From Protula sp. h YS-2021 (taxonomy: Eukaryota; Annelida; Polychaeta; Sabellida; Serpulidae), in NCBI GenBank assembly GCA_949752745.1, contig OX457031.1, forward strand, positions 2,825,324-2,889,323: a DNA stretch of 64,000 nt, in the 5' to 3' direction. A model generated the notes under the pieces. It was not told where the DNA came from and ran no database searches. It saw only the letters and a program-made list of their open reading frames with translations. Positions within the stretch are counted from its first letter, which is position 1; every line of letters starts with the position of its first letter. This document shows positions 2,885-64,000 of the stretch, in pieces. Both the position numbers and the translations under genes were made by a program.

Positions 2885-6611
<3,727 letters not shown>

Positions 6612-18290: not shown

Positions 18291-21200
18291 TGCTCGCCTC
18301 CATGTCCTTGGCGCTCATTTTGCGCGCTTTGCGCGGCAGCTGCGGGCCCTGGTGCGCTTGTTCTCCCGATGTTCCATCACGATCAATTTCCGTTTCTCTC
18401 GAATTCTTAAAAAAAAAAAAAAAAAAACATGTTGGTTTTTTGTCTATGAAAAAAAAAAACAGGCAACGGTTTTGACCAAGACCTCCTACAGATTTTTTTC
18501 TTTAATTTTTTTTTTTTTGGTACCTTGTTAAGAGTCGAGAAACGAAGACAAAAATATAAACTTCAAATAGATAAAAAGTTTATTTACTTTCTTCATGAAA
18601 AAATCCACTTTTTCTCTTTGTTTCAGACACAAAAGCAAACTACAGCAGAGGCAGGTATCCTGATCCCGCCCTCCCCTCCCCTGACTCCTCAACTCCCTCC
18701 CCCCCCCCCTACCTCAAGCCCCGCCCTCCACCTGCCCCCTCACCCCCTCAACCCAGCCCCACCTTTCACCTACCTCCAGTATTGCAAAATTCCCAATCAT
18801 ATTTTTCTACACTGCCATCCCTCCCTCCCCCCCCCCCTGTAGGCGATCCTGCGCGTTTCTATGGCCTCCCCCTCACCCCCTTCCCCGCCCCCCACTCATC
18901 TGTCGTGCCCGCCTTCTCCCCCTCACTCCCCCCACATTCCCCCCGCTCCCCCCCCCCCCCACCTCTCACCTGTCGGCGATCTTGTGTGTCTCTATGACCT
19001 CCCCCTCACCCCCCTTCTCCCGCTCCGCCCCACTCACCTGTCGGCGATCCTGCGTGTTGCTATGGGCCTCCCCCTCACCCCCCCTTCTCCGCTCCGCCCC
19101 CCCTCACCTGTCGGCGATCCTGCGTGTTGCTATGGCCTCCCCCTCACCCCTTCCCCCCTCACCTGTCGGCGATCTTGCGTGTTGCTATGGCCTCCTCGTC
19201 GTCCGACGTGTCCGAGTCGTACACGCCCGCCTTCTCCCGTCTCTCCTCCTCTTGCTCCAGGGCCTCAAGTTTCTGTTAAACGTGTCAATCACTCCCAGGT
19301 ATCAATCAGTCCAAGTTGTTAATTACTACCAAGTGTCAATCACTCCCACGTGTCATTCACTCCCAGGTGTCAATCATCCAAGCTGTTATTCACTCCCAAG
19401 TATCAATCACTCCCAGGTTGAGGGTCTCTTGTATGCGACAGTAAGTCAGTGGAGGGGGGAGGATGACAGATGGCATGGGGGGTCAGGGTTAACGAAGGGC
19501 GGTAGGGGGAGAGGCAGAGCACCTGCACGGTATGGGTGGCGGGTTGGAAGATTGGGTGGGGGAGGGGCGGAGGGCAGGACAGAGGACAGGATGACAGGGG
19601 GGGGGGGGGGCCGTACCTGCATGATATCCGATCGATGTACTCGGTTTTATTGTGACGTCGGGTTGGGGGAGGGGGGAAGCGGGTTGGAGGGGTGGGGGCG
19701 GAGATTGGAGGGGGCGGGGTTAGGAGGGGGCGGGGTTGGGGCAGGGGGGTCCGTACCTGCATGATATCCGGATCGATGTAGTCGGCGATGTTGTGGCCCT
19801 GCCAAATTTCCGGTACGATGTCGTACTTCTGGTCGTCGTTCTTCAATAAGTAATGCTCTGCAAAAGGACAGACAAAACTTCCACAACAACAACAAGACCA
19901 CACGAGCCCGTGGACAAACACGAAAAATACCCCCCCACCCACTCCCATCCCTGAACAACATTTGGGTGAAAATTATTATACCCGAATACTTGAGAATTTA
20001 GGACCATGGCTGTGCCTCCAACTCTTCCCACCCCCCTCCACATCAAATTATTGTTCAGATCCAGGTAGTAATATTCAACTTTTTTTTCTCTAGCTCCAGG
20101 CCTCACCCTTTTTTTCTCCCAGCCTACCCCTTTTTTTCTCCCAGGCCTCACCCTTTTTTCTCTCAGGCCTCACCCTTTTTTCTCTCAGGCCTCACCCTTT
20201 TTTCTCCCAGGCCTCACCCTTTTTCTCCCAGGGCCTCACCCTTTTTCTCCCAGGCCTCACCCTTTTTCTCCCAGGCCTCACCCTTTTTCTCCCAGGCCTC
20301 ACCCTTTTTTCTCCCAGGCCTCACCCTTTTTTCTCTCAGGCCTCACCCTTTTTCTCCCAGGCCTCACCCTTTTTTCTCTCAGGCCTCACCCTTTTTCTCC
20401 CAGGCCTCACCCTTTTTCTCCCAGGCCTCACCCTTTTTTCTCTCAGACCTCACCCTTTTCCTCCCAGGCCTCACCCTTTTTCTCCCAGGCCCCACCCTTT
20501 TTCTCCCAGGCCTCACCCTTTTTTCTCCCAGGCCTCACCCTTTTTTCTCCCGGGCCTCACCCTTTTTTCTCTCAGGCCTCACCCTTTTACTCCCAGGCCT
20601 CACCCTTTTTCTCCCAGGCCTCACCCTTTTTTCTCTCAGGCCTCACCCTTTTTCTCCCAGACCTCACCCTTTTTCTCCCAGGCCCTCACCCTTTTTTCTC
20701 TCAGGCCTCACCCTTTTTCTCCCACGCCTCACCCTTTTTCTCCCAGGCCTCACCCTTTTTTCTCCCAGGCCTCACCCTTTTTTCTCTCAGGCCTCACCCC
20801 TTTTTTTCTCCCAGGCCTCACCCTTTTTCTCCCAGGCCTCACCCTTTTTTCTCTCAGGCCTCACCCTTTTTCTCCCAGGCCTCATCCCGCCCCAACCTTC
20901 ACCCCACTCACTCTTCAAATCCAAGAAGTAATCCTCTCCCTGCTCCAGCTCCAGATCGCGCTCCGTCTTCCGCTTCTCGCCCGGCTCCATCTTCGCGCGC
21001 TTCTGTCGCACGCTCTCCGGAATGAACGCCGGTCTCTCCTACCATGAGGGAAAAAAAAAAAGAAAAATGTCCAAGGACACTGTAAACAGCCGCGCCCTAG
21101 TCCATGGGACGGAAGTCTCTCCTCCCTTGAGGGAAAAAAAGAAAATAAAAATGTCCAAGGACACTGTAACCAGCCGCGCCCTAGTCCATAGAACGGGCGT

Positions 21201-23148
21201 CTTTCCTAGCATGAGGAGCAAAAAAAGAAAACAAGAACGCCCAAGTACACTGCGATCAGCTGCGCCCAGACCAGAAAAAGGGGGTCTCTCCTACCACGAA
21301 AGGGGGAAGGGGGGGGGAAGAAAATAAGAATGTCCAGGGATACTGCGACCAGCCGCGCCCTAGTTCATAAAACGATGATCTCTTCAACCATGAGGGGGAA
21401 AAAAGAAAACAAGAATGTCCAGGGACACTGCGACCAGCCGCGTTCCAGTAGATAGAACATGGATATCTAACAATAATACACAAATATTCCTATCCAAGTA
21501 AAACCGGCGCCATATAATTTTAGGTAAAGCAAAAGCTTGTTAAGGTGTAGGATCAGCTATTTGAATTATTTTTTTAATGCATTTTTTAAATCAAAAATTT
21601 ATATATAATATTATATTTTGTTTAGTTTGTGTGCCTAAATGCATCTCCTAGAAATGCCACTAGTGTCCTGATGACGTCACACATGCACAGCATCGTCACG
21701 GCTGCCTGGCACTGCAATATGTACTCGGTTCCCCTAGAGACGCCACTAGTGCCCTTATGACGTCACAAACGCACTATAGCGTCACGGCTGGCTGGCTCTG
21801 CAATGCATACTCGGTTCCCCTAGAGACGCCACTAGTGCCCTTATGACGTCACAAACGCACTATAGCGTCACGGCTGGCTGGCTCTGCAATGCATACTCGG
21901 TTCCCCTAGAGACGCCACTAGTGACGTCACAAACGCACTATATGGTCACGGCTGGCTGGCACTTCAATGCGCACTGAATACTCTTTATGACGTCACACAC
22001 TCACCTTGTCGTCACGCTTGGCCGGCAGGGCGACGTGTAGTCGGTTGAGGACGTCATTCACCTTGCGACCCCTCAACTTGGTCTCCACCCGCTGGGCCAG
22101 CAATCTGTCACACGCCTGAGTGAGAAGTCAACATCACTGTGTCACCATTTACACGTCAACAACAGGGTCAACATGACTGTGTCACCATCCACACGTCAAC
22201 ACCATACCAACATCACTCTGGCACCGCACACACGTCAACAACATGGCCAATATCACTGAGTCACCATCCACACGTCAACAACATGGCCAACAGTACTGTG
22301 TCACCATCCACACGTCAACAACATGCCAACATCAGTATGTCAAAATCCAAATATGGACAACACCTCCCACCCCACTGATCTGGGATTTTCACAAACAGGT
22401 TGGAGTAGGTGTGGATCCCAAAAGGAAAGGCCCTCTCCGCCACCACCCCCCCCCCCACCCAACTCCCCCCAAAAAATAACATATTTTCTTGTCATTTCCT
22501 AAATTTAACCATAAGGTTTGGTAGCTGCAGGTTTGCTCATCCCCTCCCTTGGTACCAGCGATGCGTTCTTACACACCACTCCCCCCATCCCCTCCCCCCA
22601 CCCCTCCGTCTGCCATTGCACTACTTTCAATTTTACCCACTGCCCACTCTACCGCCCCCCCCCCCCCTCTCGTGACTCACAGGTGATTTCACATTTGCAG
22701 TCCCCCTTAGCAATGGTTTACTGTGCACCCCCCACCCCCCCCCCCCACCCCCATACCCACGTGCGTTTTTACGTTGGCTATCCCCTCCTCCGCCAGACTG
22801 GACATCTCATACACCGGTTATTGTACAACCCCCCTCCGCCTCTCCCCGCCCCCCGTATGCCCCTCCCCCCTCTCACCCCCCCCGCTTGCCTCCGCCCCCA
22901 CCCCCATACCCACGTGCGTTTTGACGTTGGCTATCCCCTCCTCCGTCAGACTGGACATAACATACACGGGTTATTGTACAACCCCCCCCTCCGCCCCCCC
23001 CGTATGCCCCTCCCCCCTCTCACCCCCCGCTTGCCTCCGCCCCCACCCCCATACCCACGTGCGTTTTGACGTTGGCTATCCCCTCCTCCGTCAGACTGGA
23101 CATCTCATACACGGGTATTTCTTCCTCCTCAAACCTTTTAAACAAAGC
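18291..23148 (-). CDS. GTPBP4: NOG1 exons 9-14: C-terminal region
   Basis: Exon 9 (23059-23148) [14 protein letters not shown]; exon 10 (22005-22115) [13 protein letters not shown] and [12 protein letters not shown]; exon 11 (20912-21038) [10 protein letters not shown] and [12 protein letters not shown]; exon 12 (19757-19857) [18 protein letters not shown]; exon 13 (19163-19272) an acidic [11 protein letters not shown] stretch; exon 14 (18405 into the gap) [11 protein letters not shown], then in another frame [15 protein letters not shown]. The frame slips near 18355-18362, next to the gap, most simply by a one-base assembly error. Base composition is CpG-rich, unlike exons 1-3. Confidence 0.92.
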
Positions 23149-26100
23149 CTGCAACAGAAGATAGTTTCCTCTTCACCGAGAAACACACAGACCCTGTTTA
23201 TTTTTCCTTTCTAATACCGGCAACTATATTTTAATAGTTAATGTATTTTAAAATTACATTTGTGTTGCAGCGAAAGTGTCGTAGGTGACAAAAGTATCAT
23301 TTCTTAATCACAATAAATAATTTTACTCACTCACTCAATTCACTCACTTTCGCCACTCACTTATCTTCCCCACACACTTTGTTTTCCTCACACTCATTTC
23401 ACTCATTCACCTAGTTTCCCCCATTCACCTTGTTTTCCTCACTCGCTCATTTCACTCACTTTCCTCACCCTATCTTCGTCACTCACTCATTTCACACACC
23501 TTGTTTTCCTCACTCACTCATTTCACTCATTTTCTTCACCCTGTCTTCATCACTCACTCACTTTTCCTCACTCCCTCATTTCACTCACCTTGTTTTCCCG
23601 ACTCACTCATTTCACTCATTTTTCCTCACCCTGTCTTCATCACTCACTCACTTTTCCTCACTCCCTCATTTCGCTCACCTTGTTTTCCTCACTCACTCAT
23701 TTTCTTCACCCTGTCTTCATCACTCACTCACTTTTCCTCACACCCTCATTTCACTCACCTTGTTTTCCCGACTCACTCATTTCACTCATTTTTCCTCACC
23801 CTGTCTTCATCACTCACTCACTTTTCCTCACACCCTCATTTCACTCACCTTCTTTTCCCGACTCACTCATTTCACTCATTTTTCCTCACCCTGTCTTCAT
23901 AACTCACTCACTTTTCCTCACTCCCTCATTTCACTCACCTTGTTTTCCCCACTCACTCATTTCACTCATTTTCCTCACCCTGTCTTCATCACTCACTCAC
24001 TTTTCCTCACTCCCTCATTTCACTCACCTTGTTTTCCTCACTCAGCTCCTCCAGCTTGCGCACGTCCACTTTATTGGCCACCACGACGAGCGGCTTGTGC
24101 GCAAACAGCGGCTTGATGTTGTCAAACAGCTCCATCTGGTGACAGAAAACGTCATCTTACCGTCATTACAAGCGTAGAAACAAACAAGTAGGACAGCGAA
24201 ACTGTCCCCAACACCGGCGTACAATCCCAGTAAAATATTTTGACAATCGATCAAGAAATGTAGGCTTGAGTGTCAGTGTGTTAACTAAAATGTGTCGACA
24301 GCCAGACAGACGAACGGACAGACCGGAAAACTAGTCCCCCAAGCCGCGGTACGCGACAGCAGCGGACTAAAAATAGATCTGAAAACTAGTGATGTGACGG
24401 TTTACCGTTTAGGACGGTTAACCGTGAAGGTGGCGGTTCGGTTAAACCGAACCGTGCTCTGTGGAAAACCGCGGTTCATTTTCGGTTTTTAATTAACATT
24501 ATTTTTGTTTTTCTCAGGACCATTTTTAACTACTATGAATGTTTCAGCTCACTATTTTAGCGCAGCATTATTTTACACTTCCAGACGAGTTCCTTTTTTA
24601 GTTAAGCGCAGTGTTTATTTATCACGTTCTAGAATAAAAACAAAAAATTAATTGGGATATCTTTAATTTATATATATATATGCATAGTCTGAAAAAATCG
24701 AAACTGAACCGAAAAAAAAAAACCGCGGAGTTTTCTTGAAAAACCGAAACCGAACCGAAAGAAAAACCGCGGATTTTTCTTGAAAAACCGAAACCGAACC
24801 GGACCCATCAGTGACGGATCACACCAGTACTGAATACTACCGCGTTTTTAACGCTTAGTTCGACCACCATTTTGGTAAGAGGGGCCAAAACCATGGCTAT
24901 GTTAGTGAAGTACAGCCCGGAGGTGGGCCAGTGCCGCTACCGCCTGTGTATAAGCGGGGCAGGGCGTGTGTCGCAGGGGGGGGGGAGAAAAAGGGGTGTG
25001 GCGCAAGTAGCCACACTGCTCCGACAGCTCGAAGTACAGCACGGAGGTGGCCACAGCCGTCACCGCTTGCGTAGAGGGGGGGGGGGGGGCTTGTGTACAG
25101 GGGGGAGGGGGCGTGTGTCGAGGGAGGAGAGGCGTGTGCGGTGTCATGTGCTGTGCCAGCGTGTAGCCGCACTGCTGCAGAAGGTCAGGACCGCCAATGC
25201 CTGTGTAAATTGGGGAGAAGGTGTGGGGGTGGGGGGGGGGGGGGTGGGACGGCAGAGCTTGTGTGGGAGGGGTACAGGAGTGTGGGGCGTCACCTGCTGT
25301 GCCAGCGTGTAGCCGCACCGCTTGTGTACAGAGGGGGGATGCGTGTGTCGGAGGGGGAGGGGGATGTCACCTGCTGTGCCAGCGTGTAGCCGCACTGCTC
25401 CGAGAGGTCCGTGAAGTAGAGCACCGCTGCCCGGAGGTGGGCCAGGGCCGTCACCGCCTGCATCTCAATCGTGTTCCTCTCCTCCAGGCTATGGTCCAGG
25501 ATTCCTGGCGTATCTATCACCTAGAAAAAAAAAAATAACCACGACCTTCAAAACACGGTAGATTAGTACAATCTCTGGTCTCTTTTTGTATTCATTTCAT
25601 TTGTAGAGGAGGTGGAGGGGGGGGGGGGTAGACCAGGATAAAGAGATGGGAGACGGGATCAGTAGGAAGCAAATTGACAACTATTCTAGCGATTTTTTTT
25701 CACCTAACATATTTTATTTTTCTCTCATTTTCTCTCTTCTCTCTCTCTCTTTTTGTGGGGATTTGTATTTGTACCTGTGTTTTGAAGAATAATATTTACG
25801 CAATGCATTCAGTGAGTCACGTGTTAGAACAGCGAGAATAATAAATTGGTCCTGAGTGTTAGAATAGCAATAGATCCCGCCGTACCTGCCAGCGGAGGTA
25901 TCTGTAGTCCATATGGCCCACGAACAGAGATTTGGTCGTGAACGCGTACGGCTGAACGTCCACATCGGCCCTCGTTATCTGGCAACACATCAAGATGTTA
26001 CTTAGCAACGCATCAAAATGTTACCTAGTAACACAAGACGCTGCCTAGCAACGCATCAAGATGTTACCTAGAAACGCATAAAGGTGTTACCTAGCAACAC

Positions 26101-29819: not shown

Positions 29820-31607
29820 GTTGCAAAACCTTTCCAAAACAAACGTGCTTCCTGTTTTTCTGCCATTCGCATTTTGTAAGAAAAACTGTCGCTGTATTCA
29901 TTACAGACTGGCAGGCCTAGTAAACTCGAGAAGTTGAGGGCACCGATTTATGCTTATTACAACGAACTTCTTTAACGAATCAAGTTAGAACTCACTCATC
30001 TGGTAAAGTTTTGATTTTCTTATTAACAGCTGAGGCTAGTTAATTCATTTTGCCGTTTTCTGATATTTTTACTTACACAATTAGTTAAAAACAATCCCTA
30101 AAACTTGTTGGTTGCGAAAAGCGTATCTTCTTCTGTGTTTCTTCTGTGAGAATCGGTTTCAGATTTTTCCGTTTTAAAAAAACTATTTAAAGCTTATTTA
30201 AACTATTAATTTAACATTAAATGGATCCGAAAAACTCAACATATTGCATGCCATATAATCTTCATATCAGATACTTTGAAACACATTGTTGGAAGAAGCA
30301 GTTTATTTAATGTAAAGTGTAAGTAAATTTCACCTTTTTTACTTCTCTGATCAACCAGAAAGAGTGTGTATTGTTAATTTTTATTATTTCTCACGTAGAT
30401 AACTCTTTCGGTATTCAAAATATCATGCTATGAAACACTTTAATTATATGAACTAAATCGCCAAACAAGATATTAAAGCAAGTTGGAGTACTAAAACTAT
30501 CTAATTTATAAGAAATTATACTGTAGAAATTGCGCGAAAGGAAATAAATCCGACTCATGCGTTGTTACTAGTCCGAAAAGCTCTCTCAGCGTTGCACACA
30601 GTGCGGTTTACCCATCGTGCTTCCAGGCTTACAGGCTGCGGGAGGTTCATTAGCAAACCAACATATGATTTTATAATAATGCCGAAGGGCTTTGTTTCAT
30701 TGAATAAGGTAGGATGTAATACAGAAAAAGAAAAAATAACCCTTAACATCACTTGAAAAGTGAGTATGCATGACTTGTAGTCAGAAATTTATGTTATATG
30801 TTTTATCAATGACATATATAAAAATAGCGTAGATATGTATTAAGATCAATTCGATGTAACCGTCAAACAGATGAATATATTTTTATGGTTTAGAATACCG
30901 AGCTTCTTTCTGATATACCGACATTACTGATTCCATGTAAAAGGCAGTGTTGATAATATGTTTTTGGAATTAAAAGAATTAATGTAGTTAAAACAAAACT
31001 AACACCATTATGGCAATAAGTAACATGGTACTAAATATTTTCAGATGTACATGTTGAGTTAGATATGCCTTGCAGCTATTGCTAATGTGAAGAACTGTCA
31101 ACTTACTAAAACGCACTTTTTTCAAAATAGAACAAATGCAATTAAAGGTTTTACTCGTTTTTATAAAATAGCTGACCTCTAGAGAGATCTATCTGTGATG
31201 TAAAATCACAGCGTGGATGGATAATTTAACAAATAGTTCCTCTTTTTTGTGAGTATTATATCACGGGATACCTAGTATTTGACGCAGTTGTTGAGTTAAT
31301 GGTCTAAAAGAAGCACAAAGTAGCAAAGATTTTTACCAATAAGACATTACAATTGATAATCAAATATTTTGCAATTTACTATGGAAAAAGCAAATTACAC
31401 ATTAACAATCGAATGCATATCTGTGAAGTGATATGATGACGTTTATCAAATAAAGTGTTTTTATAAATAAGATATTAGCATATATATTAAAGTTTGTATC
31501 AAAGTTACAATGCTGGAAAAAGAAATAGACTCGTTGAAGATTGGAAGTAATTAAGAGATTTAATGTTCTCTTATGACACATGTTAGGCAATGTTTCCGGT
31601 TTACATT
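29820..31607. other. Spacer between NOG1 and the mucin-like gene
   Basis: AT-rich. It holds the NOG1 upstream region and the 3' side of the large minus-strand gene. No clear promoter element, polyadenylation signal or further gene could be named. Confidence 0.5.
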
Positions 31608-36100: not shown

Positions 36101-38467
36101 AAATAGAAAATAGACCACCGAAAATACCTCTGACCAAGAAAATGTTTGCTATAAAACTAGTGTAGTATTACGTAAGCATGTTCTGAGGTTATCAGCAAGC
36201 TTAAATCCTGTGTTACAAGTGCAGTCATAACTTCCTTCGCTGTCTGTACATACGCTGTGTTCATCACAACTATCTTGTTCAAGATCACATTCGTCGATAT
36301 CTGTTTGAATGTCAACAAACTAAAGAAATGCTTCAATGAAATGTAATGATGAAACATCCTTGTGCCTTTAATATGAAACTTTTACTATTAGTATTGAACT
36401 AACACAATATTGTCAGATGATAAAACGCACACACAGAGTACAGCATTGACTTATAATGTGTGTTATGTTTTAATTCAGAAATTGTGTGTGTCTCACTGGG
36501 TATGTTACAATGTTTGTGTCTCTACTGTGTAAAGTGCAGAATATCATTGTGTCCTTTCTATTGTTTCACTGTCAAATATAGACTAAAGGTCACTTACTTT
36601 CAGAGATTTTTCCGTCTTGAGAGAGCTGGTAGCCTTCTCTGCAATAACATAGTATCAAGGAGCTATCACTTTCGTCAAGGCGACAGAATTGTGAGCATTG
36701 ATTGTCATCAGGGCATCTATTTGCATCTACATATAGAAGTAATTAAAACTGCACCAGTTTTACCATTGCTAAAAGATTAATGGTAAATATCACACTTTTG
36801 ATTGATGCTTTGTTTTTTACCTCTCTTATTCATTACGCACGATATTTTATTGAAATATAATTTCTTTTTAAAATCTTATCATTCACACTTGTCAAAGGTA
36901 ACTGCAACTCAAAAAAGAAGACTTAATATCAAGATTTATTCAGTATACAGTAACCATACATAGATAATAACTGGAGAAATAGTCAAATAAGAACTATTAA
37001 AGGATAAAACCGTTGTTGGCAAACACATTTAAACATCACATAACCCTAACTAAGATGACTATTGCACTTTATTTCTTATAACATAAACGCTACTTAAGTA
37101 ACATTAAACGATGGATAGGCATTTATTGCTTACCAGCGGCACACAGAGACATAAATGCTACGTAAACTCATATATGCGGTACTTCAGCAACATAAAACAA
37201 TGGATGCACATTTACTGCTTGCCAGTTTTACAAATAAGCTTTACGTTAGCAAACATAAGTGCTACTTCAATATGCACAGGCTATACGTCAGCAAGATAAA
37301 ACGGTGGTTGCACATTTATTGCTTACTAGTGGCCACCGTCAACAACTATTTATTGCTTACCATTATTAGTATCATTATTATGTTGAATCCATATAGAGCT
37401 GCTGCTTAATTTTAAAATAGGCAAAAATAGTACAACTTAACACAAAAATTAACAATAGACCCCTAGAAGCAATAAATTTTTATTTTGCTCTTTAAAAACA
37501 ACGACTGTGGGTGCAAGCCTAAGAAAAATGAGAAGTCTGTATCAGTACTTGGTATTAGTTCTATTTTCCACCAGTAAACATTTATCTGATGATCAGAGAC
37601 GTCGACCAGGGTCGTAATTGACAAGAATATTTAATATGCAGCCAGTACTAGAATTAGTAAGTGCCTTAAACGTATTTATTGAAATTTTATAATGAATTCT
37701 TTTCTCCCCGGAAGCCAATGTAGTTCTTCAAGAACTACAGAAATGCGGGCAAATTCTTGTAATCTGTAAACTAATTCTAGCAGCCATATTCTGCAAACGT
37801 TGAAGTCTGTGTATTTTATACTTCGGTACTCCAATGAGTAATCTATTACAATTGTCTAACCGGGACCTAGAAAATGTGGCAATGAGAGACTCCGCTGGCT
37901 AATGAGAACTTTCGAATTTTCGCTTACTTCATTATACATTTATTGCTTACCAGTGCCACTTTCTATACAAGATCTGTTGTTCGCCTGGAGTGTGTAACCT
38001 TGGTAGCAACCACACGTAAAGAAAGGAACTTCATCGGCACATAGCTGCTCGCAACCGCTGGTCTGTTGAGCACACTCATCAATATCTATTAAAAATAAAT
38101 TACATGTGTTTTACTGGTAAATGCTTATTCATTTTTTTCAACCGTAATGCAACAAAATTGCAGTAGAAACGTGGGCCTAATTAGAAATTCACCATCAGTG
38201 CAAGCTGATTGACCGCAAATAGTTGGCCTTCTTTGCATAATTCTAATTCGACAACTAGGTTTAAGCTTACTGGTACAGCCGAGAGAGCTATCAGATACAA
38301 GGTAACCCCCTGGACAGGTGCACGTAAATGATCCCACAGTGTTCACACATATCGCCGGAGCTATGCAGTCACCCTGGCCGCCGTTTGTAAGGCATTCGTT
38401 ATCATCTGAAATAACAGAGATAAAATCAGGGTTTGAAAAGAGGAAAGAGAGGAAAAAGAGAGAGAGA

Positions 38468-38530
<63 letters not shown>

Positions 38531-41500: not shown

Positions 41501-44500
41501 TGGTATCAGTTATCTGGTTCTTGTTATTAATAAATTTATAAACGTATGTTAAATACAAAACATCACCCAAATCTCTGCTGATGTCAGTGGATTCGTTGAC
41601 AGCTGACGCGGATAGAGATGCTGCTTCAAGATTCCCTACGTAAATATATGAAAATATGTACAAATAGATGCAATCATATGCAAATATGATAATTTAAGGC
41701 TCTGTTGAAAGAAAATGGTTATGTGTATATTGTCATGCACAAAATACATCAGGCTTCATGTGACTAAACTGAGCGAGAACGAGTCTTGTTTATCTAATAT
41801 CATACCAATACAAAAAGTACGTCCATGCTAAAGTCAACAAAATATATAATATGTCAGTTCAAAAAAGCCGTTTCATAGTCAACCTACGTAGAGCATATGA
41901 AATATGTCGAGGCTACGTTGGTGGTGCTTTAGGAAATATATGTCACACAATTCAATAGACCAAAACATGAGTATGTATAAGACCCATCATTCTTCATAAA
42001 TAAACCCAAAAACGTTGGGTTGGCTTTCACTTTTAGTAAAAGAATCCAACGTAATCAGTTCAAGTCATTAGTTTGCATTAAGCTTAAGGTTAAGATCTTC
42101 GAACACATGTACATACGAGTTAAGAGCCAATCAAACAGACATTCGTTGTTTCCGTTACAGGCTATTTTTGTGGCCTGCAGTGCTGCAGCTCGATCGGCGT
42201 CATCGACAGCGAGCCTTTCCTCAGTCTCTAAAAGATCCTTAAAATATGCCGGCCGGTAATCTGTGTTGCCGTTAAATGTTTCGTAATTCTCGTTTGTAGT
42301 GTAGAATAACGTAAATAGGTTTTCTGCATTGTCTCTGAGTCTCCCTGTGTATAGATAAAAAATACATTTACTTCATGCCTTGTGAATAATGTGTCAGTGT
42401 TGAACGAGTCCTGAAAATCTGTCGATGTTGCTCAAATAACAACACATATCTTGACTTGAAAATCAATATTTCCTTACTGGTCAATAATATTTCATGGTGA
42501 CTCCAAATATATGCTAATTGAAATATTTGTATATAAAAACCGAATAGGTTCTAAAACTGTCACATTGGAATGAAACAAAATGCATAGTATTTTTGAGTGA
42601 AAATCTTTTATTGTCTTAATATAAAGGATATGTTTTTCTTAAAAGGCTTTAGGAAACAATAGTAAATGAACAAAGAACAACTTTACAGGTTTCGCCGAAG
42701 TTTGTGTAGATGTGTTCATCTGACGAATCGGGTGAAAGAGATTGGTTTGTGCCGCGAGGGGTTAATTCGTCATTTGCATTTCCGTTAAAGTTTCCTTCCG
42801 AAACAATAAAAATTACATGCTTAAAAATGGTCTTTTTTGCTAAAAACACACACGTGCGAATTGATACAAAGATTAAATCTCGATATCAAAGTGATTAATT
42901 TTAGTGTAGCACACAACCTATTGAGTATAATTGCTCTTGATTTAACATTAAAAACTCGATATTAAAAGTTTTAGCTCTGAAGAAATAAGTACCAATTATT
43001 TAAATAAAATACCCATTGTAAGATTATCTTAATGTTTAAAATATCTTTTCTCACATAACCGTTTACATTCTAAATACTTCATTAATCTTAATTGAATTGA
43101 CTCAGTTTTTATCAGTTTACTTTGTTTTTAGATTTTGTTGTGATATATATTTGCATACCAAGATATCAAAAGTTTTAGCTGTGAAGAAATAAGTACTACT
43201 TATTTAAATAAAATACCCATTGCAAGATTATCTTAATGCTTAAAATATCTTACCTCACATAACCGTTTACATTCTAAATACTTCATTAATCTTAAATGAA
43301 TTGACTTAGCTTTTATCAGTTTACTTTGTTTTTAGATTTTTTGGGAAACAAATTTGCATACCAAGATATCAAAAGTTTTAGCTGTGAAGAAATAAGTACT
43401 ACTTATTTAAATAAAATACCCATTGTAAGATTATCTTAATGTTTAAAATATCTTACCTTACATAACCGTTTACATTCTAAATACTTCATTAATCTTAGTT
43501 GAAATGACTAAGCTTTTATCAGTTTACTTTGTTTTTAGATTTTTTATGATATATATTTGCATACCAAGAAGTCCAAACGTTTTTGTCTCATAGCGACCGG
43601 GTTCCATGGAAACCTTATGGCTCAATTGTCGCTGATTAATGGCAACTTCAAATGTTAAAGCTATAAAAGGAAAAAAATACCAGGAATAAATGTAATTAAT
43701 TGCAAATACAGTTAGAATGTTGGGTATTTGGTACTACAAGGGTTACGATTTCGAAGCCAAATAGGAGCGGTAAACAGAGAATTTACTTACGCTGTGACTG
43801 TACTACCTAGACTAATGTAGTGGTAAACAGGGACTGACGCGCACCGACTGCCTTAGCTAGACTAATGCAGTGGGTAAGATCAACTGTCACGTAATTAATA
43901 ATTATTGTTATGACCTACTGAGTCTTCAAATCCTCACTTGCTGAGCTTGTGTTAGTCCTTTATGTACTAATAAGAGGAACTTTAGAACCGTGGAATTTCT
44001 TATTACCGCCAGGGCGGGCACTCAGGTGCAAATTAGTTACCATCCATATCCATGATATTTTAATACAACCCAAAACCCAGTATGAAATTGTACACCGGAT
44101 GCAATTCCGAAACAACCTCTCTTTTTGTTGAAAAAGCACTGCATGAAAATAACTACTTTTTGTAATGTGACAGCGTCTGGTCTTAAAATTACCTTTCTCT
44201 GCGTTTTGTTGGATACATATGGTAGCACATATGGTACCCTCCCTCCCATCCAACCCTGATCTACGCCTGAACCATATCAGCTCTTCATCAATACCATGAA
44301 GATAACAGTACCATAATAACAGCAGCTGGATTCACTTCAACACTTTAATCTTCTGTTGTTAAAAATTAACAGCCTCATGCTGAATGCTGTCAATTTGAAA
44401 CTTATCATAGCACAAGTTCTCAAGGCACAACTATCTTGATCATAAATGTAAAAATGCTATGGCTTACCTTCATCATAAAACAATATAAATCTGATTTACT

Positions 44501-47500
44501 TTACCCTGATCCTCGATAAATGAAAACTATTGAACTTGTCTTTAAAAAAGTAATGCTCTTTTATTTACTTTGACTGTACTTACATAGCAGAACTAGACCG
44601 AAATTCGCACCGCGAATTAGATCCCACTTGGAATGATAAGTAATTTCAGAACTGTATAAAAAGATGACTGTTCTTTCTGCAATTTTAACCATCAAAAAGA
44701 GAAAAAAATGATAATTTGTTCTCGTACTCCCTTTTACATACAAGTGGACGTCCTTACCATTTTCGAGATATAGGGCAACTTCCGGATTTGGGCTCGAAAG
44801 TGACGTTGTGGTCAAGGCCACCGAAAGTCATACCGGAAGTAACTTCGGAGAGGGGACGGAGGTAAAAACTGAGGTCAAAATCTCACTATTTTCGAGGTAA
44901 AGGGAAATTTCCGGCTTTGGACTCGAAAGTGGCACCGAAAGTTATACCGTAAGTAACGTCGCCTATTGGTGGAGGTCGAAAATGGGGTCAAAATTGCTGT
45001 ATCTCTTACCGTTTTCGAGATAAAGTGCAACTTCCGGTTTTGGGCTCAAAAGTTACGTTAAAGTCAAGGTCACCAAAAGTCATACCGGAAGTTATGTCGT
45101 AGAGGTCAAAATCTCACTATTTTTGAGATAAAGGGCAACTTCCGGCTTTGGGCTCGAAAGTGGCATTGAGATCAAGGTAAAAGAAAGTTATACCGTAAGT
45201 AACGTCGCATAGGGGTGGAGGTTGAAAATGGGGTCAAAATTGCTGTATATCTTACCGTTTTCGAGATGAAGTGCAACTTCCGGTTTTGGGCTCGAAAGTG
45301 ACGTTAAGGTCAAGGTCACCAAAAGTCATACCGGAAGTTATGTCGTAGAGGTCAAAATCTAACTATTTTCGAGATAAAGGGCAACTTCCGGCTTTAAGCT
45401 CGAAAGTGGCATTGAGCTCAAGGTCACCGGAAGTTGTACGATAAGTAACGTCGCATAGGGGTGGAGGTCAAAAATGAGGTGAAATTCTCACTATTTTCGA
45501 GATAAAGGGCAACTTCCGGCTTTGGGCTCGAAAGTTGCATTGAGATCAAGGTCACCGGAAGTTATACCGTAAGTAACGTCGTATAGGGGTGGAGGTCGAA
45601 AATGGGGTCAAAATTGCTGTATCTCTTACCGTTTTCGAGATAAAGTGCAACTTCTGGTTTTGGGCTCGAAAGTGACGTTGAGGTCAAGGTCATCAAAAGT
45701 CATACCGGAAGTTATGTCGTAGAGGAGGTGGGGGGTCGAAAATAAGGTCAAAATTACTCTATTTCTTACCGTTTTTGAGGTATAGAGCAACTTCTGGTTA
45801 TGGGTTCGAAAGTGACGTTGAGATCAAGGTTACAAAAAGTCATACCGGAAGTTATGTCGCAGAGAGGTGGGGATCGAAAATGAGGTCAAAATGGCTCTAT
45901 TTCCTACCGTTTTCGAGATACAGAGTAACGTTCGGTTTATGATTCGAAAGTGGCCTTGAGAACAAGGTCACCAAAAGTTATACTTTACGTAACGTCGTAT
46001 TTTGTTGGAGGTCGAAAATGAGCTCAGAATTCCTCTATCTCACATATTTTTGAGAAAAGTCAGTTTTTAAATAATGTTTTTACGAGATTTGACCTTGACC
46101 AGTAATATAAAAGATATCTGGATACCGATTGACCTTATTTCGCGATTGGCCTTGACCAATAAGGCCAAGGTCATTAATTGTTATCAGGTTCAGCACTTCA
46201 CATGACCCTTCATATATATGCTCTATGTGTTCTTCTCAACATTCTTGGAGGAGATATCTGGAAACCTATTCGGTGGAAGAAAAAAAATAAAAGCGGTTTA
46301 AAAAAGGCGTAGATGCAATCCATTCCCATTTGGAAAATGTCAATTGACGTTTCCAAGTGGGAATAATCTAATGCTATGGAACTATGCCTTTATCATGGAA
46401 CAATGTAATGCTGTGGAACGACCTTATTCCTAGAAAAGGCACCGCGATAGGACTTTACTTTGCTCGTAGAAAAATAAGAAATGCTGTTGGATTTTACTTG
46501 CATCGTAGAAACATTTAATGCTTGTGGACTTCACCTTGATCGTAGAACAATGTAACGCTGTTGGGTGAGCTTTTTGTAACAACCACACCTGCTATTGTAC
46601 CATCATTAGATAGGCTATCCATAACGGACGCGGTTTCAAACCAGTGGCTGTAGTTAAAATTTGCACCAGCAACTCTGATTTCTAATTCTGTACGGAAATA
46701 GAAAGCCTTACAATAGAAAAGTATATTGTCGATTATGAACAAAAAGTAGAATATAAACATTCATTAGTAATACAAGCGCCATTAAACCCAAAAGTTATAG
46801 ATAGATTATATTCAAATAAAATATTGTAAGAAATTACTTGGTTTATTTTCCAAAGAATTCCATGTGGAAGGATAGTTTAGCTATTTGTAAGTGGTTAAAA
46901 CTGTACTTTAAACACATACACAGATCTCAAAAACACAAAAGAGGGCATGGGGGGAAGTGGTCATTTGATGCTTGCATGTATTACACTAAAACATCACCCA
47001 ACAGAGATTACACAATAAACCAAACCACACTTTTAAAATCCAGTGAGGTTAGTTTGGTAAACCCCGAAACACACTTTCATTAGAATTGTCAAATCTTTTC
47101 CAAAATACCGCCCAAATGTATTTATTATCAATTTAAACCAAACCACACTTTTAAAATCCAGTGAGGTTAGTTCGGTAAACCCCGAAACACACTTTCATTA
47201 GAATTGTCAAATCTTTTCCAAAATACCGCCCAAATGCATTTATTATCAATTTTGTTTTGTTATGTGACTGTGTCTTGCCCATGAATGTTGGACGTGGACC
47301 TAGATTATTGACTTACTTTTTAATCTGGCCGATTTTAACCGGTACTCTGACTGATTGACATCAACGTGATTAGGCTTAAAAGGCAAAGAATAAATATTGG
47401 AATAAACATACAATCCATGTTCCTTTATCACAAGCAAAGCATTACACGACTCACCAGTATGTTGCTTATTCATGCCGATGTAGACAATAAGCGAATCCGT

Positions 47501-50500
47501 GACGTGTATAGCATAAGCCCCAAATATGGTACCACGCTGGGGCTCTCCATCAGTGTTTTCCACTTGGAGATGCCTCACATTAATGGTAATCTTCTTTGTA
47601 TCATTGGGATTTCTTAAACTACCTTCAGCTACAGTGGTTTCCTCTATATCTGTACCCATTAGGATATATTCTCCTACATGCAAATACCAAATGAAACTAT
47701 ATTTGCTGAACAAACATACTTAGCGATTGTAAAAACGATGATATCATACTAGCATGTGCCGCGGATTCGGGTTTTTAGGTCTCACGCATTTCAAGATCAA
47801 ATTTGTCTTTGTGAAAACGCGAAGTTTACCAGTTCGATTTTGTTACTTTTTTCAAATTTGGAGCAATAGAAAACACAGAAATTCTGCTAGAACACATGTC
47901 ACAGATTCCATTATTGCTTAAGTTTTTATAACCGGGGTTTGTCTTGAAAAGCAACGCAATCATTACATGGCAGTTTCATTTCTATTTACACAAATAACAA
48001 AAATCGAGAAATGCGTATTACTCGTCACTCGTAAAATATAAATTGCTATGCACTAAATTATTTCTATAGAGTTGACGCTAACGAAGTCTAACCGAGTCCG
48101 TTGAACGTATACTGAAAGCCATCCATTGTTAGAAAGTGACAATCACCGAAGCCCCAGACTGAAAATTAGAGTCAAATAAAATAAACACAAAGATGTACCT
48201 CCAGTAATGCTCATTTGAAAAACTGTCGTATACTGAAATACTGGACATGCTAATGAGTACTTTTTCTAAGGAAATGCTGTTGTGTACTGCAATGCTGTGT
48301 TACCGCATAGGCTAAACAAGACTGGAGCCTTAGGGCAGCACGGTCTGGGGGAGAGGGTTAGAGGCTTCGGAGGCTTCAGAGGCTTCAGACATCAATATTG
48401 TATAGTAGATATAAGTTAGACTTTTGAATGTACTAGTAGAAATAAGTGTAACACTATTGATGACATGAACAACTTTTGTGGGGTTGAGCGGAATTCGCCG
48501 TCTAGGGTCTCACAATGTCCTAATCCGGCACTGGTGTACAGTTTGAACGCCTATTTTATTTCTCATTAGTGATTATAAACATTCAAACATCAAATTCACT
48601 GTTAAACTTGGTAAAAGTATAACATAAAGGAATTTTTTGTTTTAGTCAGTTTTTTAATTAAGTATAAATCTTTTTTTGACTTACAAAACCATGGCCTACT
48701 AAAAACGCAGCGGGTTTCAATAGGCCGAAGCTCTGTGTACAGGTTACACTTTGTGGAGTCTGTTGCACCGCAACAAAAATCGTACGGTTCCTTGTCATAT
48801 GTTGTGTAAATATCTGTAAAATATCACATATGGCAAAACAATCGCTTATACTTATAATTTATATCTGTAAAAGTACAAACAATATATGTTGTATACACTT
48901 CCTGCAGTACTATAACTTATACTATGTATATGATACAGATTTATTCAGTCACATTGCTTATACAGAGTATGTTGCTTATGCTTAGTTCAATAACATGCTG
49001 TTACGTGCATTACCAGAAGTTACGCAGTATAATAACGTTACAACGTTTTCTATACTGACTTAAACTAGCCCTGGATTGCCAATCAAGAAGCTATTTTTTG
49101 TCAAAAAGTATGTCATGATATAATGTGCAAGAAATGATATGTTATGAGGTTTCTGCCAAAACATCACCATAGTTAGAGCGAAATATTCAATCAACTTTCA
49201 CTGGCAACTAAATTGTTTCGGGTTAGGAATGCATTTTCACTCTTTACTTGCAGTTCAGAAGGTTTAACACCAAAATACTTTTGCTCAGATAATTGACCAG
49301 GTTTCCCTTCTTGAATTTACTGTCCGTACTCACGGTGACCGTATTGCCGTGAAATGTGTCCGTACTCACCGTGATCGTATTGCGGATGATACACTACGAG
49401 GTTTCCTGCATGTTGACTGTTTAGAATGAGAGCGTTGGTGATTGGATTGTAGCAACATATCTGTGGCACATAAGTATTAACATAAATATTAACATTTATA
49501 TTTACAGCAAAACCTGACATCCTACTGCAAAGGTTTCATAACATTGATACTGAAAAAAACAACTGTTTTTCCTGAGGGGGAGCAACAAATTCCAAAACCG
49601 TACGCTACGGCTTAGATGTGCATAATGTCTCTAAGTAACAATTGTTAAAATGGATTAGTCACATATAATTCATTTATCAAAATTATAAATCTTAAGGGCC
49701 TGTATTTTTTTATTTTTGCTCCTAACTAACCTTTGTGCCGAAAGTAGAAGCTTTGCTGATGTAACACAGTCGAACTCCTGCAATGTGTAGTTCGGGCCAA
49801 TGAATCTACCTCGATTCGACCACTGGCTTTAAAAGAAAAACTTGCAAAATGCTTTAAGTTCTTTTATAGGGCATCAAAGATTAGATTGTGAGTTTCTGCA
49901 ATGGTTATGGGGCGGCAATACAAATATTAAACATATTATGCAATACCTCCTTATCCGAAAATATCAGATTCAATTTATATATTGCATATAACTATATGAC
50001 TATTTATAATAATAAAAAGCAATAGTGTACACACAATGCAGAGAATGTGCAATCCAAAGACATCTTATGAATTGCTATTATCGGATGATGCTTATGCGAA
50101 ATATTTTATGTTGGGCGATTTTACCAGATTATGCTTATGCGGATTATTTTCTGTTGTTTGATATTGCAGGTTGATGCTTCTTGTGGATTATTTTCAGTGG
50201 GGCGGTATTGACGGATTACTTACCCACCACATTGAAACCAAATCACACGGGCAGGGTGAGAAAGCTCCATATTGGAAATATTGCACTGGACCAGCCACGG
50301 TCAACCCCAGTAATTGCAGTATATAGGTCCATATAGTACTCGGCGCTCTCCACCTGACAAATAGCATGCAGACTTCTTCTAATTTTGAATTATTTTAAAT
50401 TATTTTTATAGTAGATGCTATGCGGCATTTCTCATAATGATGCTTAATTTACAAATTTAAATAAATTACAATACATTTTTAAAATTTGAAATTTAACGAA

Positions 50501-53500
50501 ATGGTTAAACAATTAAATAATCCAATCAATATAAGAGGAAGTAGATCTTGCTTCATTGTCGATTAAATTTTTGATAACTTTATGAAGTAAAATTACAGAG
50601 ATGCTTTTGTTTAGTTTTACATGAGATATTTATTTAAGCAAAGGGACACAAGCCTTTGCACTACCAAGCAAAGGACCGAAACACCATGCACTAAGTACCA
50701 AGCAATGAGAAAGCAATGAGCCGAAACAATCTACACTAAGTACCAAGCAATGGACCGAAACACTATGCACTAAGTACAAAGCAATGAGCCCAAATATCAC
50801 CTTTCTTCTGAATACCAGGCCTCACATAGGAGATCATTAGTAACAGTTGCAATTATTTCAATCTCCTGCGAAAAGATTCCAACAGCTGCCTGTATTTCTA
50901 AAAATATATAAAATTGATCTAATCACTTTGTAATACAAAAAATTGTACGCTTTACATCAGCTTAAAGAATTTTACAATTTCTAACAACCTCTTAGTCCTT
51001 AAAATGTTAAACCTCTAGATCTTTTTCTTTAAGAAAGAAGCTTCAAATTTAGGGAAGAATATCGGTTATATATTTTCAAAACTAGAGCCTTCATATTTAA
51101 CGCAAAGTTGGTCAATTTCTTCCTGCAAGAAAAGATTTCAAATTTCAGGAAAAATATCGGGCCAAATTTTTTACTACTAGATCCTGCAATCGAAGGAAGA
51201 ATGTCAGTCAAATTTCTCATGACTAGATCTCTGAGATTTCGGGCTGATTGACAATCTAAATTCTCACCACTAGAGCCTCGATATAGAGTAAGTTCGTCGA
51301 GATTGAAGGCCTCTGATCGCGTCTGATTGATGTAGGCAAAGCTACAGTATGAATGTTCATACTGGCGAGTGATTGGCGCAGTTTTGTAGTAATAACCTAA
51401 AAATAAAGAAAGTTTAATACGGGGTTATAGGTTATTGGGCTTAAAATGAAGTTAAAATGCCTTTATTTTATAATTAACCAGATTGCTTCAATATTCGGGA
51501 AAACTTCCCTTCAAGTTATAAATGAAATGAAAAAGGCCTTACCTCTATTACCTCTTTTCCTATATCTAGTACTACCACCACTATTATTACTATATAATGA
51601 TAATAATAATAATTATAAAAATATAAGAATAATAATAAGAATAAAATAAAATAATATAATAAAATAACTAATTGCTGAAGGCATTAAAATTCAGATCTAA
51701 TCGTGGCTGTTTACTTGCTCGCGACTGCATTGCTCACGAGAAGTTGAAAGCGCGTACTGATGACGGTGATGATATTTACCAATTAAAGCATCTCTTATAA
51801 AACCACTGTGCCTCCAGCCGACGCTCTCGTATATGTACAATACAGATGTCCTCCTGTTTTCTGGATCTGCTAACAGCACAAACTGGAAAGTGTTTGGCTA
51901 AAACAAATAAAGAAATATTATAAAATTAAAACTGTGTACACAAACTTTACTTTCTTTTTTATTCTTACGGATATGTGTTTTTATCGGTATCTTACTGGTT
52001 AAAATTATAAACGTAGTCTATTATGAGCTTTGAAAACATATGTTTCAGATATTACTGTGTTAAGTATTTATCTACACCCACCTTTTAAAATTAACATCCT
52101 GAAAAACTTTCCAGGATGCCCTCTTTATAGCTTCAAGCTGAGTGCACCTCAAACGCGACTTAGATATTTACACTGTTTTATTGATATACTTTAAGTTTTA
52201 CTCAAAACTAGTCATAGTCTAATGCTTCCATGTTTTCGAAGTGACATACCAACACTCACACTATCAAGGCTGCTGTCATACTGTTCCTGGGGTACCATGT
52301 TTTGCCACGTAACCACTAGCAACAGTACTGGGTCAAAACCTGAGCTGCCACTCTCTTCTAGCTTTTCTCTTGCCAAGTTAAGTATTCTCTGCGTTCTGGC
52401 ATGCGCAACACATAAAGTGACTCAGTTTTTAAATGTTGTTTATGTAGGCGTTTTATACTGTTTAATTGCGGTTTGTGGTATTATAACAGTACTACTGCTT
52501 ACCCAAGAACACAATGGATAAAATAAGTAAGTATAAATGACAATGCTTGTTGATTGCTTTTGCATTTGCTACGCTATAGCTGATGTATAACTGGGTTATC
52601 AAATCAATGCTTATATATGTCCAGTGATGCTAGTTAATAAATATTTTGTACTTAAATAATTTGTAGTTAGCCAATTTATCACTTTATCATCATGTGCAGA
52701 GATTATAATAACCAGACATACATGCATTATGCACAGATATATGTGTAAACATTGCATACACACCCTGTGCATCAAGGCGACCAAACATTGCATAAACTCT
52801 GTGCAACCAGGATTGCAAATATTACCTACATTTTCTATACAGACAGGAGTGTAAATACTACGTACGCAGTCTATAAAAGCAGGTGTGTAAACATAACATA
52901 CACACTCTATACAGCTAGGTGACCAAACATTACCTATACAATCCACAGCCAGGCGTGCAAACATTGCCTACATACTCTGAACAGCAATGCATGCAAACAT
53001 ACCATACAGAGTGTTAGACCCTTGATTTGTTTGTTTACGATAAATGTTTTAAACTCGGTCGCTATATTCTAGAGTACGGGTAATGGGCACAAATGGGAAA
53101 ACTCAATGTCCGCCATAGATTTTGGAAGTTATTTCCATGTTTCGGTATACCCGATGCTTGCGGCGGTGACGCGGTACAAAAAATAGTGCATTATCGTTTC
53201 TGTTTCATTATATTGTGTGCGAATTTTGTAATGCAATTATAGATAATGAATATGTAAATATTATACATAAAATTGGAAATAAAAGTGATGTTGATGGACA
53301 ACTTTAAAAAAAATTAATGAATAAGATATTTCTACACCGCTGTACTTTCGTCAGTATGACGTCACGACAGTATATATAAGTGACTACACACAGCATTGCT
53401 TCAGTGTATAATCTAGGTAGTTTATAAACTAACACTTAAAATTCTCCTCTGAGAGCCCTCTGAGTAACAGCCTTAGCTGAACTAAACCTGGGAGAACAAG

Positions 53501-59500: not shown

Positions 59501-62500
59501 TCCGCTAAACTCATCAATACACAAACACGAGTACGAAAACGTCTCCTCTACACACGTACCGCCATTTTGACATGGGTCAGAAGTACAGTAATCTATATCT
59601 AGAAGTAAAGATTTTTATTCGCCAACAAAATCAACAGAATGGCCGGCTAATTGATTAACCAACTACACAAATAGCAACAAGTAGGGTTTGGTTTATTTTA
59701 TAAGTTCAGTACAAGGCCAGCATCTACTCTTATTCGGTATAATCAAGAAATATCCACCCGTAATGTCCCGCATCAACATGGGCCCGCATGAGAGATGCAG
59801 TATTAGTTTTTATTCTATGAACTATCAAGTTACCCTTTAAGTTAATACTTTGTTATGCCTCTGACATTACACATTGCAAATAGTATCGAAGTGTGCTGAA
59901 AGGCCGAAAGGTAAATTCCTAGTTAGAAGCTATAGCTATTCTGCTACATTAATTTACAATCCAGAGACATAACAAATGTGTGAAAACTACATTAGACAAA
60001 TATTAATTGATTTTAAGCTAACATACATAACAGACAAATGTCCCAGTGGTTTTTATATTGAGATAAAGTTACATTGACTATACAGTTACTAAGTTTTTCT
60101 GCATTTTCTAATTAGATGAATCAACGTCTGACCTGTTTCGCATTGTTCTCCGCTAAATCCATCAATACACAAGCATGTGTACGAAAGCGTCTCCTCTACA
60201 CACGTACCGCCATTTTGGCATGGGTCAGAAGTACAGTAATCTATATCTAGAAAAAATTAATTCGGCAACAAATCAAAAGCATTATCAATTAATCGATTAT
60301 TCATCTACACAAACTCTTCAAATTATGGTTTGGTTCATTTCATAAGCCCAGGACGATCAGAGCATCTTATATTATACGAAATAATCAAGAAATATCCATC
60401 CGTAATGTCCAGCATTCACATTGTCAAGAATATAAAATACAGTGTCAGTCCTGACACCATGAAGTAACAAGTTGCCCTTTAAGTAACTATTCTGTTATGC
60501 CATCTCCCATTGCTCCATACAGATACTGTTGAAGTGTTCCGAACGTTCACTTCCTAGCTAGAAGTTGCAGCAATTTTTCTGCACTAATTTACATTCCTAA
60601 GACTGCATAAATATGTAAAAACTACATTAGGCAGATATTAATTTATTTTGAGGTAACATACACAGCATACAAAGATTCCAGCGGTTTTTATTCTGAGATA
60701 AAGTTACATTAACTACGCAGTTACTAAGTTTTATTGTATTTTTCAATCATATGAATCAACGTCTCACCAATCTCGCATTGCTCTCCGCTAAACTCATCAA
60801 TACACAAACACGAGTACGAAAACGTCTCCTCTACACACGTACCGCCATTTTGACATGGGTCAGAAGTGCAGTAATCTATATCTAGAAGCAAAGAAATTTT
60901 TTCGCCAACATAATCAACAGAATGACCGGCTAATCGATTAACAAACTACACCAATTGCAACAATTAGGGTTTGGTTTATTTTATAAGTTCAGTACAAGGA
61001 CAACATCTACTCTTATTCGGTATAATCAAGAAATATCCACACGTATTGTCCCGCATCCATATGGGCCCGCATGGGAGATGCAGTATTAGTTTTTATTCTA
61101 TGAAGTAACAAGTTGCCCCTTTAAGTTAATATTCTGTTATGCCAACTTACATTACACATTGCAAATAGTATCGAAGTGTGCTGAAAGGCCGAAAGTTAAC
61201 TTTCTAGTTAGAAGCTATAGCTATTCTGCTACATTAATTTTTTTACAATCCAGAGACTTAATAAATATGTGAAAACTACATTAGGCAGATATTAATTTAC
61301 CTTAAGCTAATATGCACAATACAAAAATATTTCAGTGGTTTATATTTTGAGGTAAAGTTACATTAACTACGCAGTTACTAAGTTTTTTTGTACTTGTTAA
61401 TTAGATGAATTAACATCTGACCTGTTTCGCATTGCTCTCCGCTAAATCCATCACTGCACAAACATGTGTACGAAGACGGCTCCTCTACACACGTACCGCC
61501 ATTCTGGCATGCGTCAAAATTACAGTAGTCTATATCTAGAGATAAAAGGCTTTGATTCGCCAACAAAATCAATAGAATAACCGTCTGAACGATTAGTCAA
61601 CTGCACAAATTAAAAATATATTGTTTGGTTCATTTTCTAAGCTCAGGGCATGGACAGCATCGATTTCTTATATGAAATAATCAACAAATATTCGCCCGTA
61701 TTGTCCCGCGTCCACAATGTCCCGCATGTGAGACACAGTAGTAGATTTGATACAATGTCATTGCTCATTTCAAATATTGCGCAAGTATGCTGGAGGTTCC
61801 GAGCCGAGGTACCGTAACAATTTTCCAGCATTAATTTACCATCCACAGAATTAATAAATAAGCGACAATTACATTTAGCAGATATTAAATTATTTTAAAT
61901 TGACATGAAGTATTATTTACCTTTCTGGTCAAGAATAACTGGTCAATAATATCCTTATAATCAAAATAAGTCAACATGTGCTTTGTTACATGACTTAATT
62001 TCCTTTTTCATAGAAATGACTGTTATGTCTTTTTTTTTTTAAATTTCTAATCAGCAATGAAAACTTATTGACTTGGGAATCTACCAATTGTATTTACTTA
62101 TGTTATGCAGTGATTCTAAATAATGCTAATTCACAATATAAATAAAACATTATGCATGCTTTGATAATATTTATTAAGTCTTTATAAGTTTTTAAAGTTT
62201 AAATTTTCAAATCTGTTATGATAGAAATCTTCAAATTTTAAACATTTAAACATGCCTTGTAAGTTAAACGTGATTAACTACATGGATGATAAGGTTTTAT
62301 TGACATCTCACCTGTCTCGCAGAGCTAAGGATTTATATACATTGAATTGACATCTCACCTGTCTCACAGAGCAGCCCCGTAAAGCCGTCAGCACAAGAGC
62401 ACGCGAATACCATTGTGCCTTGGTTGCATGTGCCGCCATTTTGGCATGGATAAGAATTGCAGTCATCTATAACTAGAGATTAGAAAATTAGATTCGCCAA

Positions 62501-64000: not shown

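What the first reader, a model, noticed from the sequence alone, without database searches (positions are those of the whole stretch)
18830..63645. Exon edges with their splice sites are tandemly copied into introns across two genes
In NOG1 the 3' ends of exons 7, 8, 9, 10, 12 and 13, and in the mucin-like gene the ends of exons at 62359, 51268, 49370, 46535, 43565, 41187 and 37951, are repeated inside the next intron. The copied piece is usually 15-55 exonic bases plus the GT donor plus some intron. Copy numbers run from 2 to about 7, and unit lengths from 36 to about 200 bp. NOG1 exon 11 and GT49 exon 3 show acceptor-side versions. Random minisatellites would not stop at splice borders this often. 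I infer a recurrent process that starts tandem duplication at exon-intron junctions (for example R-loop- or splicing-linked breaks), or selection that tolerates only such duplications. I know of no described system that matches it.
Basis: partly seen in the sequence, partly recalled or inferred. Interest (0 to 1): 0.88.

Follow-up and report, generated by a model that had tools for sequence, protein, structure and literature searches.

The report
Exon ends copied into neighbouring introns
In two genes of a marine invertebrate, short pieces that straddle the end of an exon have been copied in tandem into the next intron; this kind of repeat was already described in amphioxus, but here it appears in a very different animal and more often at exon ends than random placement predicts.

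Summary
I modelled NOG1 (first 13 exons, in frame) and the mucin-like EGF/NIDO gene (43 exons, one join open). NOG1 exon 11 is a true acceptor-side case; GT49 exon 3 was not confirmed.

Against chance: 12 donors in 53 introns carry a copy, against 2.9 expected if arrays started at random points and 7.2 from overall repeat cover (T44). Acceptors are not enriched. The excess holds for copies at least 90% identical (7 donors; 0.9 and 3.3 expected), so it is not only conserved exons keeping old copies visible. It is strongest in NOG1; in the mucin-like gene it fades at high score. Two genes only, in a window picked for being striking.

"No described system" is wrong: these match "mirages", tandem duplications of exon-intron boundaries known in amphioxus. 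New are the animal (lophotrochozoan near a siboglinid annelid), the density and the donor bias. Most likely ordinary tandem duplications, tolerated because the first donor is used. Why donors are favoured stays open.

The parts
24934..25425 (-). NOG1 exon 7 3' end (exon ends 25371) and copies of the junction at 25294, 25148 and 24993
23326..24048 (-). NOG1 exon 8 junction array (exon ends 24028), unit about 90, donor AAGGTGAGT exact in four of the eight copies scored
22728..23116 (-). NOG1 exon 9 junction array (exon ends 23059), unit about 145, 58 exonic bases copied
21647..22047 (-). NOG1 exon 10 junction (exon ends 22005) and diverged 86-bp array carrying up to 42 exonic bases
21032..21442 (-). 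NOG1 exon 11 acceptor-side array, unit 84; overlaps the first 7 bases of the exon (starts 21038)
19472..19796 (-). NOG1 exon 12 junction (exon ends 19757) and copies at 19617 and 19523
18741..19201 (-). NOG1 exon 13 junction (exon ends 19163) and copies at 19108, 19038, 18970, 18837 and (weak) 18763
62299..62373 (-). mucin-like exon 4 junction (exon ends 62359) and one 27-base copy at 62312
51025..51299 (-). mucin-like exon 15 junction (exon ends 51268) and weak copies at 51175 and 51080
49321..49384 (-). mucin-like exon 19 junction (exon ends 49370) and one copy 36 bases away
46360..46576 (-). mucin-like exon 23 junction (exon ends 46535) and degenerate copies at 46459 and 46388
42958..43584 (-). 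mucin-like exon 25 junction (exon ends 43565), three 203-bp units
40750..41234 (-). mucin-like exon 29 junction (exon ends 41187) and old copy at 40811 (73 of 100 identical)
37119..37980 (-). mucin-like exon 34 junction (exon ends 37951) and short dispersed copies at 37327 and 37134

Best explanation
These are mirage-type minisatellites: local tandem duplications whose first unit straddles an exon-intron boundary, later expanded or decayed in the intron. Shown: exon tail, donor and intron head recur downstream, the reading frame stays open, and donor junctions hold more such copies than random intron points. Inferred: the duplication arises by ordinary slippage or break repair; the spliceosome keeps using the first donor, so every copy leaves with the intron and the duplication is nearly neutral; unequal exchange then changes copy number. 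Acceptor-side copies are rarer, plausibly because a duplicated upstream acceptor would be chosen first and would add intron sequence to the mRNA. The donor excess over intron interiors is not explained by tolerance alone.
For: Junction-spanning copies at all 13 listed donors, 0 of 100 shuffles each. The NOG1 model made with the first donors aligns with the solved NOG1/GTPBP4 chain over residues 1-482 with no insertion, across the junctions of exons 7, 8, 9, 10 and 12; the junction of exon 13 is at its end and not covered. 35 of 41 aligned copies at these donors keep GT (exon 8 capped at 12, a few copies weak). Of 28 of those 35 GT-bearing copies, 14 have a donor score equal to or above the true one and 25 would shift the frame or add a stop if used, so first-donor use is likely. 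Donors 12 of 53 introns against 2 or 3 acceptors (Fisher P = 0.023 for 12/54 and 3/53). The same structures are described in amphioxus, where the authors report undisturbed splicing (passages).
Against: No RNA evidence for which donor is used. The young-copy excess at donors (7 against 0.9 or 3.3) is more than equal tolerance of intron and junction duplications predicts. Two of the 13 are only just above their shuffles.
Confidence: 0.72

Rival explanations
1. A process aimed at 5' splice junctions starts the duplications, for example breaks linked to transcription, R-loops or splicing.
For: Donor excess over both nulls at T44, also among copies at least 90% identical; acceptors not enriched.
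Against: No shared GC skew. NOG1 donors 1 to 6 reach no score of 36, and 33 of 42 mucin-like donors do not. In the mucin-like gene alone there is no excess at T60 or T70 (2 and 1 donors, P 0.19 and 0.52 against first copies). TRF arrays spanning donors 4 against 2.0 expected, P = 0.13.
Confidence: 0.2
2. Chance only: the introns are so full of minisatellites that some must reach the exon edges.
For: Pooled over 1614 intron points, donors (13 of 55) are hit about as often as points with any downstream copy (18%), P = 0.19 at T44, 0.44 at T60, 0.68 at T70 (mucin intron 10 included). In NOG1 alone 6 donors against 4.1, P = 0.14 at T44.
Against: One point per intron gives 7.2 expected against 12, P = 0.012 at T44 (0.046 at T40, 0.044 at T50, 0.087 at T60); asking for the first copy of an array gives 2.9, 0 of 20000 draws. 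Arrays across or within 20 bp of donors: 9 of 31 against 3.1 expected, P = 0.002.
Confidence: 0.15
3. The introns arose by tandem duplication of AGGT-bearing exon pieces (Rogers model), and the copies are relics of intron gain.
For: Copies carry exon tail plus GT; the amphioxus globin paper builds an intron-gain model on mirages.
Against: Copies carry intron sequence as well as exon, so an intron existed before the duplication in the clear cases. Intron age was not tested.
Confidence: 0.05
4. Redundant donors are kept by selection, as spare or regulated splice sites.
For: Exact donor copies at NOG1 exons 8, 9 and 13.
Against: 25 of 28 copies would break the frame or add a stop; at NOG1 exon 10 and mucin-like exon 23 the copied donors score far below the true one.
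Confidence: 0.05
5. Assembly artefact.
For: A run of N lies at 18091-18291 next to a 44-bp array; collapsed or inflated arrays are possible.
Against: Copies differ from each other by substitutions and have varied units and ages.
Confidence: 0.04

Closest known systems
[quoted passage not shown] PMC3087553 and PMC3902484, passages seen)
   Same: Tandem units of 10 to 160 bp across an exon-intron boundary, on either side; many but not all copies keep AG or GT; authors report undisturbed splicing.
   Different: A different animal group; six donors in one gene; donor side dominates here; splicing, polymorphism and somatic instability not tested here.
Minisatellite with multiple splice donors in the human interferon-induced gene 6-16 / IFI6 (Nucleic Acids Res 1995; title seen in a reference list; the rest recalled)
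   Same: A tandem repeat that multiplies a 5' splice site.
   Different: From recall, one gene, a very short unit and copies used as alternative donors; here use is unknown and would mostly break the frame.
[quoted passage not shown] ATP2A1; potato RdRp, PMC4974935, passages seen)
   Same: Local tandem duplication that involves splice signals.
   Different: That process makes a new intron; here the duplicated piece contains existing intron and no new intron is seen.

Membership tests
mirage minisatellite | tandem repeat unit spans an exon-intron boundary | tested here: met
   13 of 13 listed donors, 0 of 100 shuffles each; NOG1 exon 11 acceptor
mirage minisatellite | splice signal present in many but not all copies | tested here: met
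   GT in 35 of 41 aligned copies at the 13 donors
mirage minisatellite | coding sequence and frame unaffected | tested here: met
   NOG1 open over its first 13 exons and aligned without insertion; mucin-like gene 43 exons in frame, start phase assumed and the join of exons 11 and 12 left open
mirage minisatellite | regular mRNA splicing despite the copies | not testable with these tools
   no RNA data; first-donor use inferred
mirage minisatellite | length instability between haplotypes or cells | not testable with these tools
   one assembly only
intron gain by tandem duplication of an AGGT exon segment | the duplicated segment is exonic and its copy forms a new intron | tested here: not met
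   copied units contain exon and existing intron sequence
IFI6-type donor minisatellite | copied donors used as alternative splice sites | not testable with these tools
   no RNA data; 3 of 28 copies would give an in-frame, stop-free extension

The most novel reading that the evidence does not exclude
In this lineage tandem duplications start preferentially at 5' splice junctions, a donor-directed mutational process that repeatedly re-seeds arrays from exon ends across the genome; each array then holds several equal donors in a row, a natural test of how the spliceosome picks the first.
Probability: 0.22. Interest if true: 0.75.

Novelty: new member of a known kind. Interest (0 to 1): 0.5.

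Why it matters
It carries mirages from amphioxus to a lophotrochozoan, so they are not a cephalochordate oddity, and sets them against random placement: donor junctions are favoured, acceptors are not. Arrays with identical donors in a row (NOG1 exons 8, 9, 13) are natural tests of splice-site choice: a rule that prefers the donor nearest the acceptor would take the last one, whereas the intact protein implies the first. A count over any annotated annelid genome would show whether duplications really start at splice junctions.

Tried and rejected
R-loop signature: coding-strand GC skew in 150 bp after the donor has no consistent sign at 12 hit donors. TRF-only test: weaker, reported beside the sensitive test. 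Detection bias from conserved exons: restricting to copies at least 90% identical did not remove the excess, except that at T60 the any-copy comparison is not significant (5 against 3.2, P = 0.16). GT49 exon 3 acceptor: repeat found but it ends before the acceptor. The shuffles were laxer than the real search (two alignments, long query only); one search repeats them on equal terms. Dropped before counts: mucin intron 10 (copy of a whole EGF exon) and the per-gene part of 54; mucin intron 2 (57 bases) had no background points; intron points within 45 bases of an edge were not sampled; the intron after NOG1 exon 13 is partial. In one search I scored 28 of the 35 GT-bearing copies. Earlier ungapped runs gave 12 of 55 donors and were replaced by gapped ones. 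Papers: mirage, minisatellite and amphioxus gave two papers. Other searches showed no title or abstract about such copies in annelids in the rows listed (20 of 58, 15 of 165); open-licence library only. Odds: the chance rival was raised from 0.12 to 0.15 after the per-gene results.

Full report
What the window is. It is animal DNA. NOG1 (GTPBP4) lies on the minus strand from 29819; its first 13 exons give an open frame of 483 residues, and residues 1-482 align with the solved NOG1/GTPBP4 chain, with two one-residue gaps and no insertion; the 3' exons lie near a run of N and were not modelled. Among the 120 listed of 7991 scored proteins none exceeds 81% identity; the best named one is Ridgeia piscesae, a siboglinid annelid. 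A tree of 45 rows puts the window in a supported group of nine with Ridgeia and unnamed proteins (97/95); two other annelids (Owenia, Dimorphilus) fall elsewhere, the window's branch is long, and no amphioxus row was included. So: a lophotrochozoan, probably an annelid; the species is not known. Branchiostoma proteins should be in that collection (my knowledge), so an amphioxus origin is very unlikely. Seven of the eight proteins matched by the mucin-like gene are from Ridgeia or Lamellibrachia, at 28-29% identity. That gene runs 63644 to 31608 on the minus strand: 43 exons, EGF, NIDO and further EGF domains; a membrane segment and tail are seen by eye. Its 5' end lies outside the window, the start phase is assumed, and the join of exons 11 and 12 is left open.

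Check of the observation. Gapped local alignment of up to 60 exonic plus 60 or 22 intronic bases around each donor against the rest of its intron found junction-spanning copies for all 13 listed exon ends. With the same protocol on 100 shuffles of each intron, none reached the real score for any of the 13; of the other 41 donors tested only mucin exons 10 (an exon duplication) and 35 (30 against a shuffle maximum of 30) had 5 or fewer shuffles at or above. Side-by-side sequences for NOG1 exons 8, 9, 13 and mucin exons 4, 19, 25 show exon tail, GT and intron head together. Exon 9 repeats 58 exonic bases nearly unchanged. 62359 and 49370 are 27-base copies with a spacer. 51268 and 37951 are just above their shuffles.

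Is it more than chance? The introns hold many minisatellites, so donors were compared with intron points treated alike. Pooled over 1614 points at T44, 18.3% have a downstream copy and 5.6% lie in the first copy of an array; donors 13 of 55, P = 0.19 and 8e-6. With one point per intron and without mucin intron 10, 12 donors in 53 introns stand against means of 7.2 (P = 0.012) and 2.9 (0 of 20000 draws). The first-copy null is the stricter match, because a junction can lie only in the first unit; the any-copy null is the more cautious. Acceptors: 2 hits against 3.7 at T44. Copies at least 90% identical: 7 donors against 0.86 (0 of 20000) and 3.3 (P = 0.009) at T44; at T60, 5 against 0.87 (P = 0.0002) and 3.2 (P = 0.16). 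By gene at T44: NOG1 6 donors in 13 introns against 0.9 and 4.1 (P = 0.14 for the latter); mucin-like 6 in 40 against 2.1 (P = 0.006) and 3.2 (P = 0.046), but 2 against 0.8 (P = 0.19) at T60. TRF arrays alone: 31 in these introns, 4 spanning donors (2.0 expected, P = 0.13), 9 spanning or within 20 bp (3.1 expected, P = 0.002); acceptors 2 (2.0 expected) and 5 (P = 0.19). So there is a donor-side excess whose size depends on the null, in two genes, in a window picked because it looked striking.

How it most likely works. A tandem duplication across a donor leaves the exon intact if the first donor is used. Of 28 GT-bearing copies scored with a simple matrix made from the window's own donors, 14 equal or exceed the true donor, and 25 would shift the frame or add a stop; with the intact protein this implies first-donor use, which no RNA here shows. 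Duplications across acceptors put a full acceptor upstream of the true one, which should be worse; this may explain 12 against 3 (P = 0.023). Tolerance explains why copies persist, not why young copies are more frequent at donors than inside introns. Candidates are a directed process, or re-seeding from the conserved exon copy; identity falls with distance from the exon in NOG1 exon 13 but not in exon 8 or mucin exon 25, so this is undecided.

Comparison. Amphioxus mirages (PMC3087553 and PMC3902484, passages) are the same structure: units of 10 to 160 bp across exon-intron boundaries, splice signals in many copies, undisturbed splicing by the authors' account, length instability. The first amphioxus report (Nucleic Acids Res 2002, seen only in a reference list) is not held. 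The human 6-16 minisatellite with multiple donors is known to me from a title and recall. The finding is a new member of a known kind in another animal group, with a new quantitative point about donors.

Noticed in passing
57608-61535: Tandem array of EGF exons in units of about 640 bp; exons 6 and 8, and exons 7 and 9, encode identical peptides, as if a two-exon unit was duplicated. A further EGF exon copy at about 57608-57720 looks frame-broken by eye.
   Followed up: partly
63240-63644: Mucin-like exons 1 and 3 look like duplicates of each other by eye, donor flank included.
   Followed up: no
3947-4967: Broken Tc1-like transposase fragments on the minus strand, named by eye from ORFs.
   Followed up: no
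42958-43360: Each 203-bp unit after mucin exon 25 holds an AG-to-GT stretch of about 20 bases that by eye resembles the two ends of exon 25 joined.
   Followed up: no
52638-54230: The end of mucin exon 12 (54209) and a degenerate 36-bp array more than 1 kb downstream seem to share a unit; scores did not exceed the shuffles.
   Followed up: partly
   Followed up: no
25974-26301: A 23-bp array overlaps the first bases of NOG1 exon 6 from the acceptor side.
   Followed up: partly
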